Source of the DNA: Fimbriiglobus ruber | Lineage (GTDB): Bacteria > Planctomycetota > Planctomycetia > Gemmatales > Gemmataceae | Length of the DNA: 64,000 bases | Direction: 5' to 3' | Assembly: GCF_002197845.1 (NCBI RefSeq) | Contig: NZ_NIDE01000014.1 | Span: 1,302,001 to 1,366,000 of the forward strand | Notes under the pieces: model-generated | Told to the model about the DNA's origin: nothing | Databases searched by the model: none | Seen by the model: only the letters and a program-made list of their open reading frames with translations | Made by a program: the position numbers and the translations under genes | Shown: one piece after another, positions 1 to 58,765 of the stretch | Layout: each line of letters begins with the position of its first letter | How positions within the stretch are numbered: the stretch's first letter is position 1

Positions 1-1477
1 TCGCCACCACGCCGGCCGCCGCCGCCGCCTCGACGTTGTCGGCGAACGGGAAGAACGCGTCGGACGCGAGGACGGCTCCCTTCACCCGCTCGCCCGCCTT
101 CTTGATCGCGATCTGCGTCGAATCCACCCGCGACATCTGCCCTGCCCCGACGCCGACGATCTGCGTGCCCTGCGCGAGTACGATCGCGTTCGACTTCACG
201 TGCTTACACACCAGCCACGCGAACCAGAGGGCCGCCCGCTGGGCGTCGGTCGGCTCGGTCTTCGTGACCACCCGCCACGCAGCCGGGTCGTCCGCGCCAA
301 CGTCCCGCGCCTGGACGAGAAGGCCGCCGTCGACCCTGCGGTAGTCGGTCCCCTGAGGGCTGCCGAACAGCGGGCCGACTTTCAGCAGGCGGACGTTCTT
401 CTTCCAGGTCGGCTTGGTAATCAGGATCTCGAAGGCGTCCGCGTCGAAGTCCGGGGCGATGATGCACTCGACGAACCGCTGGCCGGTGGCGAGCGCGTCA
501 GCCGTCGCGGGATCGACGGTCCGGTTGAACGCCAGGATGCCGCCGAAAGCCGAGAGCGGGTCGCCTTCCCACGCGTGGGCGAAGGCGTCGGCCAGCGTCG
601 GGGCGGTGGCGGCGCCACACGGGTTGTTGTGCTTGATCACCACCGCGGCCGGGTCGGCGAACTCGCGGGCGAGGTTCAGCGCGGAGTCGAGGTCGAGGAT
701 GTTGTTGTAACTCAGCTCCTTGCCGTGGAGCTGCTGGGCCGTCGCCACGCAGGGCCGGGCCACGCCGGGCTCCGTGTAGAACGCGGCAGTCTGGTGCGGG
801 TTTTCGCCGTAGCGGAGGGTCTGCTTGCGGATGAGCGAGACTTGCAGGACGTCCGGCTGGGCGTCGCCCGTGTCGCCGTGGTGGAGCCCGTCGAAGTAGC
901 CGGCGATGGCCGTGTCGTACTGCTGGATGCGGGCGAACGCTTCTTTCGCTGAGGTCAGCCGCATCAGCCGGGTGACGCTCCCGCCATTTTGAGCGAGTAC
1001 GTCCAGGAACGGCGTGTACTGCTTCGGGTCGACGAGGACGGAGACGGCCTCGAAGTTCTTGGCCGCCGCCCGGATCATGCACGGGCCGCCGATGTCGATG
1101 TTCTCGATCGCCTGGGGCACGGTCACGCCCGACTTCGCCACCGTCTGCTCGAACGGGTAGAGGTTGCAGACGACGAGGTCAATTTCCGGCAGGTTGTGTT
1201 CGGCCAGGGTGGTCATGTGTTCGGGCTTGTCCCGCTTGGCGAGCAGGCCGGCGAACACGGCTGGGTGGAGCGTCTTGACGCGGCCGTCGAGGATCTCCGG
1301 GAAGCCGGTGAGGTCGGCCACGTCCTTCACTGCCAGCCCGGCGTCCGCCAGTGCTCTCATCGTGCCGCCGGTCGCGATCAGCTCGACGTTGTACTTGATC
1401 GCCAGGACGCGGGCGAAGTCGACGAGCCCGGTCTTGTCGGACACGCTGAACAGGGCGCGGCGGATGGGACGGAGCAT
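1..1477 (-). CDS. purH: Bifunctional AICAR formyltransferase / IMP cyclohydrolase, C-terminal end cut by the window
   Basis: Catalyses the last two steps of IMP synthesis in the cytoplasm: formylation of AICAR with 10-formyl-THF, then ring closure. The protein starts MLRPIRRALFSVSDKTGLVD, the typical N-terminus of the methylglyoxal-synthase-like cyclohydrolase domain (about residues 5-150). The transformylase domain follows and contains the family motif KHNNPCGAA. The start ATG at 1477 is preceded by GAGGA at a good distance. About 490 codons are present and the frame stays open at base 1, so only the last few residues are missing. It is a stand-alone gene here, facing away from nothing obviously purine-related. 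The identification is secure. Confidence 0.96.
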   Translation of the reverse strand, partial: MLRPIRRALFSVSDKTGLVDFARVLAIKYNVELIATGGTMRALADAGLAVKDVADLTGFPEILDGRVKTLHPAVFAGLLAKRDKPEHMTTLAEHNLPEIDLVVCNLYPFEQTVAKSGVTVPQAIENIDIGGPCMIRAAAKNFEAVSVLVDPKQYTPFLDVLAQNGGSVTRLMRLTSAKEAFARIQQYDTAIAGYFDGLHHGDTGDAQPDVLQVSLIRKQTLRYGENPHQTAAFYTEPGVARPCVATAQQLHGKELSYNNILDLDSALNLAREFADPAAVVIKHNNPCGAATAPTLADAFAHAWEGDPLSAFGGILAFNRTVDPATADALATGQRFVECIIAPDFDADAFEILITKPTWKKNVRLLKVGPLFGSPQGTDYRRVDGGLLVQARDVGADDPAAWRVVTKTEPTDAQRAALWFAWLVCKHVKSNAIVLAQGTQIVGVGAGQMSRVDSTQIAIKKAGERVKGAVLASDAFFPFADNVEAAAAAGVVA

Positions 1478-4331: not shown

Positions 4332-4856
4332 ATGCGCGACTGGATACGAAACGTCTACCTCGCGGTCACGACGATCACCGAGGGGATGTACGTCACCCTC
4401 TGGTACTTCGTCCAGACGTTCCGCCGCAAGGCGTTCACGCAGCACTTCGCCTATCCGGAACTGCCGGTCCCGATTCGCCCGCGGTACCGCGGGTTCCACC
4501 GGTTCGACCTGACCGCGTGCATCGGGTGCGACAAGTGCGCCCGGGCCTGCCCGGTGGACTGCATTTACATCGAGAAGGAAAAGGTCAAACTGGCCGACGG
4601 CAAGACGGCGTTCCGGGTCGACGGGTTCAAGATCGATTACACCAAGTGCATGTTCTGCGCGCTGTGCGTCGACCCGTGCCCGGCCGACTGCATCTTCATG
4701 GGCTCGACCTACGACATCAGCTGCTACACCCGCGACGGCTGCGTCGTCGACTACGCCAAACTCCCGCTCGACGTGGCCTGGGGGCCGGACACGCTCAACC
4801 CGACGGTCGTCCACGAGTCGAAGAAGGTCTCGCTGCCGGTGTGGACGAAGACGTGA
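4332..4856 (+). CDS. nuoI: NADH-quinone oxidoreductase subunit I (NuoI-like 2x[4Fe-4S] ferredoxin)
   Basis: A 174-aa iron-sulfur protein with two full CxxCxxCxxxCP clusters: CIGCDKCARACPVDC (about residues 58-72) and CMFCALCVDPCPADC (about residues 100-114). The N-terminal YFVQTFRRKAFTQHFAYPE region and the FHRFDLTACIGC context are those of Complex I subunit I, which carries clusters N6a and N6b on the membrane arm junction. Unusually, no other nuo gene is adjacent; Complex I genes must lie elsewhere, or the protein serves another quinone-linked complex. The start ATG at 4332 gives the usual family N-terminus. Confidence 0.88.
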   Translation: MRDWIRNVYLAVTTITEGMYVTLWYFVQTFRRKAFTQHFAYPELPVPIRPRYRGFHRFDLTACIGCDKCARACPVDCIYIEKEKVKLADGKTAFRVDGFKIDYTKCMFCALCVDPCPADCIFMGSTYDISCYTRDGCVVDYAKLPLDVAWGPDTLNPTVVHESKKVSLPVWTKT

Positions 4857-50915: not shown

Positions 50916-51056
50916 CCGGGTTTCGAACTCATTCTGTACCCCGGCAGATTGTTCGGCGGGCAACAGATAAGGAAGCACGCTCCTTGAACCTCGGCCGGTC
51001 GGGCGGTGTCATGGTTTCAGATGGTTCCCCGTCGTTCGTTACGTGTTGGAAGTGCG

Positions 51057-52460
51057 ATGCAAGAGCTTTTCGACACTCTGCAACAACGCCGTCGGCCGGA
51101 GGATGTCGCGGAAATGATTCGCGGCGAATCTGGCCACGACCTGACGCCACAAGAGTCAAAGTTGCTGGACAAGGCCGCGCGTCATTCGCTCAAGCGCGGG
51201 CTCGTCAAAGCTACCTCGATGCTGGAAGAGTTCCACCGGCCCGTTTCCCCCGAACGGCAGGTCCGCCGGACACTGGAACTGTTCCGCCGGACGGAACCGT
51301 GGACGGCCGCCGAGTGCGCCGACCCCGAACGTGTGCAGGCGTTTATCCAGGAATTGTGCCCGCTGATCCGCAAAAAGTTCGGCGAGAGCGATTTCAAACA
51401 CCACCGCCTGAACGACGAGCAGCGGACGGCTCAGGGGCTGGATCTTTCGCGCCGCCGGTATAACAAGCTGTTTCGACTCCTCGGCCGTCTGGAGACCAAA
51501 CTCAGTACTTACGTACGAGAGATGCAGAAGTATGACTTTACCCGTGTCGGCAAATCGCGGCTGGCGACGCGGCTTTCGTGGGCCGAGTTCGCGAAAGACT
51601 CGGCGACTGCGGCGTTCGTCGCGTATTTCGCGGCCCGCTGTAACCTGCGAAGCGTCTTCACCAACACGCCACAGCAACGGCCGTATGACGAAATCGCCGA
51701 CATGCTGTTTCAACGACTGGAGCGCCGGCCGGACCGGACGAACTGGTGGGCCGTCGCTCACGTGTTTCCGGACCCGCGCGTGTTGGCCCGGTTGAACGAC
51801 GCACAAAAGGGCGAACTGCTTGGCCGCTGGCTCGTATTGCTGTGGGACATCGCCGGAATGCTACGTGACGTCTGGCAGCGAAGCACCATCCGGCGCGACA
51901 CCATGATCGTGCAGCGGGGAAACGATTCGTCCACCTGGAACAACACGGCTAATGCGTGGAACCGGGCGCGCGAAGCCTGGATCGCTTTGTTGCAAAGCAT
52001 GGGGATGGAAGCAGAACTCGACGCCCTGTGTTTCGGCAAGGTTCTTCGGTTGATGGCGGCCGATGTGGCCTACTGGCATCAGTTGAGCGGCGGCGGGCTC
52101 GACCCGAACACGTTTGTCTGGAACGACCTGCCGTTGCCGTGGGAGGTGTTGGCGGGCGACGCCTCTTGTACCCGCCAGCAAGTGGAAGAATCGTGCCATC
52201 GGCACGGCGTCGACCCGATCAAAGGCGGCTGGGTCGCACCCCCGCCAGAGCGCCGCGTGGAGAAATTCACCCCGACACCGGAACTGGTTCACGGCGTCGC
52301 CGTCGCCGATCCGGCGCTGGCAAAAGTCCTCCGCCGTGCTGGTTGGTTCTCGGGTCGGATACTGCACCAACCTGACGAAGTGCCCGACGCGGTGACGGTC
52401 CGCCGCAACGAACACGGTTTCGCGACGGGTGTGGACCAGGGTAATATCGAAAGTAGTTGA
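51057..52460 (+). CDS. Unknown large soluble protein
   Basis: A 467-aa protein from ATG 51057 (ggaag site). It is mostly helical (SKLLDKAARHSLKRGLVKAT, LELFRRTEPWTAAEC), with a long basic stretch DLSRRRYNKLFRLLGRLETK and a C-terminal region with PPPERRVEKFTPTP. No catalytic motif or family is recognised. It ends 13 bases before the tandem tRNA genes, so read-through into them is plausible. Confidence 0.7.
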   Translation: MQELFDTLQQRRRPEDVAEMIRGESGHDLTPQESKLLDKAARHSLKRGLVKATSMLEEFHRPVSPERQVRRTLELFRRTEPWTAAECADPERVQAFIQELCPLIRKKFGESDFKHHRLNDEQRTAQGLDLSRRRYNKLFRLLGRLETKLSTYVREMQKYDFTRVGKSRLATRLSWAEFAKDSATAAFVAYFAARCNLRSVFTNTPQQRPYDEIADMLFQRLERRPDRTNWWAVAHVFPDPRVLARLNDAQKGELLGRWLVLLWDIAGMLRDVWQRSTIRRDTMIVQRGNDSSTWNNTANAWNRAREAWIALLQSMGMEAELDALCFGKVLRLMAADVAYWHQLSGGGLDPNTFVWNDLPLPWEVLAGDASCTRQQVEESCHRHGVDPIKGGWVAPPPERRVEKFTPTPELVHGVAVADPALAKVLRRAGWFSGRILHQPDEVPDAVTVRRNEHGFATGVDQGNIESS

Positions 52461-52473
52461 GAACGACGGGTTT

Positions 52474-52545
52474 CCTGGAGTAGCTCAGTGGTAGAGCGGC
52501 CGGCTCTTCACCGGTTGGACGCAGGTTCGAGCCCTGCCTCCGGGA
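52474..52545 (+). tRNA. tRNA-Lys (anticodon CTT), copy 1
   Basis: 72 bases folding into a cloverleaf: acceptor CCTGGAG with CTCCGGG (one G:T pair), D-arm GCTC/GAGC, anticodon stem GCCGG/CCGGT, T-arm GCAGG/CCTGC with loop TTCGAGC. The loop is CTCTTCA, so positions 34-36 read CTT (Lys). The base after the anticodon is C, unusual because position 37 is normally purine in tRNAs reading A-codons. CCA is not encoded. Reading the loop one base later would give TTC (Glu) but would lose the universal T33. Confidence 0.85.
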
Positions 52546-52562
52546 CTAACCCGTGTCCGTAC

Positions 52563-52634
52563 TCTGGAGTAGCTCAGTGGTAGAGCGGCCGGCTCTTCAC
52601 CGGTTGGACGCAGGTTCGAGCCCTGCCTCCAGAG
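52563..52634 (+). tRNA. tRNA-Lys (anticodon CTT), copy 2
   Basis: Identical to the first copy except for the end base pairs of the acceptor stem (TCTGGAG with CTCCAGA) and the discriminator base (G instead of A). 17 bases separate the two genes. The same unusual C follows the anticodon. Confidence 0.85.
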
Positions 52635-52769
52635 ATTGTTTCTGAGAAATGTACGCGGTGTAACAATCCGCGGCTGCTCTACATGCGGTTGAAGCAACGA
52701 GGTCGGTTGCCAATCAAGTAAGCGCGCTTCGCAGCGAAGAAGATAACCTGGTTGGCAGGTGACTGACCC

Positions 52770-52877
52770 GGCGGAAAGGTGAGCGCGAGGGAGGTCGGCG
52801 GTTCCAATCCGCCCCGGACTAATTGCGCAAGCGGTACGGTAGCTCAGGGAGAGTACCTTCGCGCTCATCTCTTTGCC
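52770..52877 (+). ncRNA. Candidate circularly permuted tRNA-like RNA in a long helix
   Basis: The 3' half precedes the 5' half: anticodon stem strand GAGGG (52787-52791), 5-base variable AGGTC, T-arm GGCGG/CCGCC with loop TTCCAAT (52797-52813), acceptor 3' strand CCGGACT (52814-52820), linker aattgcgcaagc with palindrome ttgcgcaa, acceptor 5' strand GGTACGG (52833-52839), TA, D-arm GCTC/GAGT (52842-52854) and anticodon stem strand CCTTC (52856-52860). Acceptor pairing has one mismatch and one G:T; the D-loop is short (5 bases). The flanking strands extend the anticodon stem to 22 positions (52770-52791 with 52856-52877, one mismatch, four G:T). Could be a permuted tRNA, a permuted tmRNA-like tRNA domain, or a decayed tRNA arrangement. 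Confidence 0.45.
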
Positions 52878-52989
52878 ACGTAGCGCCCGCTACCACAGAC
52901 CTTTCGTCGTCACGAATCCCAGGAATGCGTCCTCTTCAGGGGGCACAGTGACTTTGGCCCCGCATTGCACCAGGACCGTAGAGGGTAAT

Positions 52990-58529: not shown

Positions 58530-58613
58530 GGAAGGGCGAGCCAACTGGTGATGGCACCCGTCTTGAAAACGGGCGAGCGACGAGCCTTGAGGGTTCGACT
58601 CCCTCTCCTTCCG
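58530..58613 (+). tRNA. tRNA-Ser (anticodon TGA)
   Basis: Cloverleaf of 84 bases: acceptor GGAAGGG with TCCTTCC, D-arm GCC/GGC, anticodon stem CCCGT/ACGGG with loop CTTGAAA (TGA at 58564-58566), long variable arm (gcgagcgacgagccttg) and T-arm GAGGG/CCCTC. Reads UCA and other UCN codons through wobble. Nearly identical in body to the GGA tRNA at 55646. Confidence 0.93.
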
Positions 58614-58765
58614 CTGACCGCAGCCCCGCGGCCCGGGCACCCGGTTCACACCCGCCCCGCGTCATACCGGCGATCACTGTCTGACGCTTTTTGTAAAGAA
58701 TTGTCATGTCGACGAAGCGGGGCGGATTCGTATCCCTTCACACCCCTTGTGGGATCAACGACGGC

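What the first reader, a model, noticed from the sequence alone, without database searches (positions are those of the whole stretch)
52770..52877. Circularly permuted tRNA-like fold inside a 22-position helix
Seen directly: a tRNA 3' half (variable AGGTC, T-arm, acceptor strand) precedes its 5' half (acceptor strand, TA, D-arm, anticodon stem). They are joined by a 12-base linker containing the palindrome ttgcgcaa, and the outer strands pair at 21 of 22 positions. Nearly all tRNA spacings are canonical; exceptions are a 5-base D-loop, one acceptor mismatch and a C in the third position of the T-loop (TTCCAAT). Permuted tRNA genes are known from some archaea and algae, and permuted tmRNA genes from some bacteria; a bacterial permuted tRNA would be new to me. 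Alternatives are a tmRNA-like domain or rearranged tRNA remnants.
Basis: partly seen in the sequence, partly recalled or inferred. Interest (0 to 1): 0.85.

Follow-up and report, generated by a model that had tools for sequence, protein, structure and literature searches.

The report
Stand-alone bacterial permuted tRNA mimic
This stretch of a planctomycete genome most likely encodes a small non-coding RNA that imitates a tRNA with its two halves swapped, built like the known bacterial Y RNAs but lying far from, and in one relative without, the Ro protein that usually partners them.

Summary
52770-52877(+) has a tRNA 3' half (variable loop, T-arm, acceptor strand), a 12-nt linker and a tRNA 5' half (acceptor strand, TA, D-arm), inside a 22-position helix paired at 21. 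It is beyond chance: 2 of 500,000 shuffles reach 21/22. One other Gemmataceae genome (G016, another genus) carries a homologue with the same cloverleaf. Seven pairs changed on both sides, and G-U pairs show that the + strand is the RNA. It is not a disguised tRNA: the helix runs through the anticodon-loop position, position 33 is not U and no anticodon exists. It is not tmRNA: both genomes have one-piece ssrA elsewhere. The plan is that of bacterial Y RNAs (YrlA, RF02553; full-length match, 28.5 bits, far below the 69-bit threshold). At least twenty permuted Y RNAs were recovered in this family, many beside Ro60-type genes. The window copy differs: uninterrupted stem, GCAA-capped acceptor arm, 5-nt D-loop, C at T-loop position 57, no Ro gene nearby. 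G000 has Ro60 on another contig; none was found in G016. Verdict: a real, new stand-alone YrlA-like RNA. A Ro60-related or independent tRNA-decoy role is inferred; nothing shows expression or binding.

The parts
52770..52791 (+). 5' strand of the 22-position basal helix (inner five, GAGGG, sit where the 3' side of an anticodon stem would be)
   Evidence: 21/22 paired with 52856-52877; 6 pairs with double changes in homologue
52792..52796 (+). variable-loop equivalent AGGTC
   Evidence: sequence, identical in homologue
52797..52813 (+). T-arm GGCGG-TTCCAAT-CCGCC (C at position 57)
   Evidence: sequence; invariant in homologue
52814..52820 (+). acceptor 3' strand CCGGACT
   Evidence: 6/7 paired with 52833-52839; 7/7 in homologue
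52821..52832 (+). linker AAUU + GC-GCAA-GC hairpin that caps the acceptor arm
   Evidence: outer hairpin pair G-C becomes C-G in homologue
52833..52839 (+). acceptor 5' strand GGTACGG
52840..52855 (+). positions 8-9 (TA), D-arm GCTC-AGGGA-GAGT with 5-nt loop, and A26
   Evidence: D stem invariant in homologue
52856..52877 (+). 3' strand of the basal helix
52474..52635 (+). two tandem tRNA-Lys(CTT) genes upstream (context, not part of the RNA)
   Evidence: ARAGORN and Rfam

Best explanation
A stand-alone non-coding RNA of about 110 nt, transcribed from the + strand, with the architecture of bacterial Y RNAs (YrlA): a long basal stem formed by its two ends carries a tRNA-like module in permuted order (T-arm, hairpin-closed acceptor arm, D-arm). 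Shown: anatomy, excess over chance, conservation of the pairing in a second genus, strand. Inferred: that it is expressed, and that it works as a tRNA decoy whose T/D elbow is seen by tRNA-binding or tRNA-modifying proteins (as TruB and DusA act on YrlA), while the stem docks a partner. In the window's genome that partner could be the Ro60 protein encoded on contig C1; in G016, where no Ro was found, it would have to be another protein or none.
For: Rfam YrlA match over the whole model (1-114), 28.5 bits, E 4.4e-4 in 561 nt. Homologue in G016 found by DNA (87% over 75 nt, E 2.6e-19), with 7 double-changed pairs against 0-2 when the partner is slid; RNAalifold recovers the same fold unprompted. 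The + strand keeps 38/40 and 38/39 pairs, the - strand 33/40 and 31/39, because 6-7 pairs are G-U. In Gemmataceae, at least twenty permuted modules of the same plan (T-arm, 6-7 bp acceptor, 2-18 nt linker, TA, GCTC...GAGC) were recovered, many next to TROVE/Ro60-type genes. The window's genome has a Ro60 gene: TROVE E 2.4e-40, vWA_Ro60 E 6.1e-68. YrlA as a tRNA mimic and DusA/TruB substrate that tethers Rsr and PNPase: PMC8394870.
Against: The YrlA score is below Rfam's cut-off of 69, and the junction between the two tandem tRNA-Lys genes scores higher (32.1; 58.6 against 41.2 with a model of local YrlA modules), so scores alone do not prove kinship. The basal stem lacks the internal loop and the motifs of the Ro-adjacent YrlAs. 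No Ro gene lies nearby, and G016 shows none. Only two sequences are known. No expression data; no sigma-70 promoter match.
Confidence: 0.72

Rival explanations
1. A genuine Ro60-binding YrlA that simply moved away from the Ro gene and diverged, acting in trans with the Ro60 of contig C1.
For: Ro60 gene in the same genome; full-length YrlA alignment that includes the basal stem; 3' strands with CUUUGCC / CCUUGCG at the outer end, recalling the UUG motif of Ro-bound RNAs (inference).
Against: The G016 homologue keeps the fold although no TROVE, vWA_Ro60 or divergent Ro-like gene was found there. The local Ro60 gene already has two tRNA-like RNAs of another type directly upstream. No internal loop in the stem.
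Confidence: 0.3
2. A permuted tRNA gene whose ends are joined after transcription at the anticodon loop and whose linker is cut out, as in red algae and some archaea.
For: Canonical cloverleaf spacings in permuted order.
Against: The helix runs on through the loop position in both homologues; positions 32-33 are G-C in the window copy and C-G in G016, not a loop with U33; no bulge-helix-bulge; the acceptor arm is closed by a GCAA hairpin in both.
Confidence: 0.04
3. Leftover of two tandem tRNA genes: 3' half of one, spacer, 5' half of the next, without function.
For: Two identical tRNA-Lys genes lie just upstream, and their junction matches the module model.
Against: A junction does not predict the 22-position outer helix (2 in 500,000), nor its repair by double changes in another genus, where no tRNA gene was found in the 15 kb held around it.
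Confidence: 0.08
4. The tRNA-like domain of a permuted two-piece tmRNA.
For: Same gene order as permuted tmRNA (general knowledge).
Against: Both genomes have a full-length one-piece tmRNA (159 and 136 bits); no Rfam tmRNA match and no room for a tag reading frame in the hairpin.
Confidence: 0.01

Closest known systems
YrlA / bacterial Y RNA (Rfam RF02553)
   Same: Permuted tRNA-like module (T-arm, closed acceptor arm, D-arm) on a basal stem formed by both ends; size within 90-150 nt
   Different: Uninterrupted 22-25-position stem without the internal loop and motifs of Ro-adjacent copies; GCAA-capped acceptor arm with AAUN bulge; 5-nt D-loop; C57; no Ro gene nearby
Circularly permuted tRNA genes (red/green algae, some archaea; PMC3978253)
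   Same: 3' half precedes 5' half
   Different: No anticodon loop or splice motif; not made into a tRNA as far as the sequence shows
Permuted two-piece tmRNA
   Same: Order of the tRNA-like halves
   Different: No tag frame or pseudoknots; normal ssrA elsewhere in both genomes

Membership tests
YrlA (RF02553) | tRNA-like T-arm, acceptor arm and D-arm in permuted order | tested here: met
YrlA (RF02553) | acceptor arm closed by a short loop | tested here: met
   12-nt linker with GCAA hairpin in both homologues
YrlA (RF02553) | basal stem from pairing of the 5' and 3' ends | tested here: met
   21/22 pairs, conserved by double changes
YrlA (RF02553) | score above Rfam's gathering threshold (69 bits) | tested here: not met
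   28.5 bits; several Ro-adjacent copies in the family also fall short (28-68 bits), so this is not a clean exclusion
YrlA (RF02553) | Ro-binding part of the stem (internal loop and conserved motif) | tested here: inconclusive
   the local Ro-adjacent motifs (UACAAAC...CUCGUGCGG; AAGGG...CCUUGUCG) are absent by eye; Ro-binding motifs vary and binding was not measured
YrlA (RF02553) | Ro60/Rsr gene adjacent or at least in the genome | tested here: inconclusive
   present on another contig in G000, none found in G016, which is a fragmented assembly
YrlA (RF02553) | binds Ro60 and PNPase; modified by TruB/Dus | not testable with these tools
   needs biochemistry
Circularly permuted tRNA gene | ends that can be joined to a 7-nt anticodon loop with U33 and anticodon | tested here: not met
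   helix continues through the loop position; 33 is C (window) or G (G016)
Circularly permuted tRNA gene | bulge-helix-bulge splice motif | tested here: not met
   continuous helix in both
tmRNA (permuted) | tag reading frame and mRNA-like domain; the genome's only ssrA | tested here: not met
   one-piece tmRNA in both genomes

The most novel reading that the evidence does not exclude
A Ro-independent class of permuted tRNA mimic: a stand-alone RNA that kept the YrlA module but replaced the Ro-docking stem with a plain long helix, acting by itself as a decoy or scaffold for tRNA-handling enzymes.
Probability: 0.4. Interest if true: 0.65.

Novelty: new variant of a known kind. Interest (0 to 1): 0.47.

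Why it matters
It suggests that a permuted tRNA-like RNA can persist in bacteria away from, and perhaps without, the Ro protein that defines the known class. That separates the two halves of the Y RNA idea (tRNA mimicry and Ro docking) and offers a natural test of what the tRNA-like module does alone.

Tried and rejected
Rfam at gathering threshold: nothing at the locus. A model built from 20 local YrlA modules (R2) did not separate YrlA from tandem-tRNA junctions: tRNA-Lys junction 58.6 bits, window element 41.2, homologue 36.2, so module scores were dropped as evidence of membership. Model R1 over 95 family, 102 order and 392 phylum genomes found only the two copies strongly; its weak hits were YrlA modules, plain hairpins or a tRNA region. 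Exact-pattern scans: a strict pattern found nothing in genome contigs and viral contigs; a looser one found only the record of the G016 copy and nothing viral. No similar DNA in phages or plasmids. The five weaker DNA hits in the family match only 25-33 nt; three lie on ordinary tRNA genes. The PF05731 search alone misses some Ro proteins: G070's Ro, beside rtcBA, scores only 19.4 bits on it but 58.2 on vWA_Ro60, which is why G016 was also searched with PF25045 and the divergent Ro-like protein. The main YrlA papers are not held.

Full report
What is there. The + strand at 52770-52877 reads, in order: 22-nt stem strand, AGGTC, T-arm, acceptor 3' strand, 12-nt linker, acceptor 5' strand, TA, D-arm, A, 22-nt stem strand. 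The stem strands pair at 21 of 22 positions; the acceptor pairs at 6 of 7. ARAGORN and Rfam at threshold do not call it. The stem is far from chance (2 of 500,000 shuffles) and the whole descriptor, even without a T-loop rule, appears 8 times in 980 shuffled single-strand windows. A natural control is close by: the junction between two tandem tRNA-Lys genes (T-arm at 52521) also fits the module, because 3' half plus spacer plus 5' half is what tandem tRNAs look like, but it has no outer helix.

Conservation. Of 95 genomes of the family, one other, G016 of a different genus, holds a homologue (87% over 75 nt). It lies in the Planctomycetota MAG record VGZJ01000018. Its minimum-energy fold is the permuted cloverleaf on a stem that reaches further out than the window's, with one U.U mismatch. 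The window copy's own minimum-energy fold keeps the stem, T-arm and D-arm but pairs the acceptor strands differently, so its acceptor arm rests on the comparison. Between the two, 7 pairs changed on both sides, 6 of them in the basal stem; sliding the partner by 1-3 columns leaves 0-2. Both copies have a mismatch at the same stem position (A.C, U.U). RNAalifold finds the same structure without being told. The G-U pairs fix the strand: 38 of 40 and 38 of 39 pairs form on +, 33 and 31 on -. Position 57 of the T-loop is C in both. The linker is AAUU or AAUA, then a 2-bp stem with a GCAA tetraloop, whose outer pair is G-C in one copy and C-G in the other; so the acceptor arm is capped and offers no free 3' end. 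With two sequences the statistics are limited.

Why not a tRNA or tmRNA. A permuted tRNA must give a 7-nt anticodon loop when its ends are joined. Here the helix runs straight on, and positions 32-33 read GC in the window and CG in G016. Both genomes have complete one-piece tmRNA genes.

What it resembles. The closest described RNA is YrlA, the bacterial Y RNA, whose tRNA-like domain mimics the D, T and acceptor arms, is modified by DusA and TruB, and whose stem tethers Rsr/Ro60 while the tRNA-like domain binds PNPase (PMC8394870; operon context in PMC7790460). RF02553 matches 52769-52881 over its whole length at 28.5 bits, far below the curated 69. In Gemmataceae such RNAs are common: beside TROVE genes in G041, G032, G050 and G006; beside a Ro-like protein without any Pfam match in, for example, G008, G009, G010, G011, G017, G026, G088, G089, G092 and G094; and in a classical rsr-yrlA-rtcBA arrangement in G070. 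Twenty-three extracted modules share one plan. The window element has this plan but differs in D-loop length, T-loop base 57, the capped linker and the uninterrupted stem.

Partner. The window's genome encodes Ro60 on contig C1. G016 has no match to TROVE, only a 14-bit match to vWA_Ro60, and none to the divergent Ro-like protein. As a MAG of 590 contigs it could lack a gene by accident. The surroundings are not shared: in the window, tRNA-Lys genes upstream and a cupin-domain gene downstream; in G016, a reading frame of unknown family upstream and one that looks like leucyl/phenylalanyl-tRNA transferase downstream (named by eye, not tested).

Conclusion. A real, conserved, stand-alone YrlA-like RNA, not filed as YrlA proper because the model threshold is not met and the Ro link is unproven. 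Expression and every step of function are inferred.

Noticed in passing
L019 about 4340-4590 (-), L027 (upstream of its TROVE gene), L028 about 580-1240 (+): Directly upstream of TROVE/Ro60 genes in G000, G089 and G051 lie tandem tRNA-like RNAs in normal, not permuted, order whose anticodon arm is replaced by an insert sharing a motif like CUUGCC...GGCCG...GACUGUUCUCG. They look like Y RNAs with the Y stem placed in the anticodon arm; no description was found in the papers held.
   Followed up: partly
L066 2275-3891 (-) (P0001) and homologues in 24 of 95 Gemmataceae genomes: A protein without Pfam, NCBIfam or PADLOC match, often encoded next to one or two permuted YrlA modules. The best structural matches of its predicted model (pLDDT 76) are all Ro60/Rsr (Foldseek E down to 4.9e-13, TM up to 0.59): a divergent Ro60 lineage.
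   Followed up: partly
L139 2796-7372 (-): G070 carries rsr, YrlA (74.7 bits, above threshold), rtcB and rtcA in a row, the arrangement known from Salmonella; Pfam TROVE alone misses its Ro protein (19.4 bits).
   Followed up: partly
window 52474-52546 and 52562-52635: Two tandem tRNA-Lys(CTT) genes identical over 67 nt; read across their junction they match YrlA models (32.1 and 58.6 bits), a trap for YrlA annotation.
   Followed up: yes
window 58530-58614: Rfam calls this tRNA-Sec (52 bits) while ARAGORN calls tRNA-Ser with anticodon tga; the anticodon argues for Ser.
   Followed up: no
window 51006-52460: A 484-aa open reading frame upstream of the tRNA-Lys genes has no match in Pfam, NCBIfam or PADLOC.
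   Followed up: no
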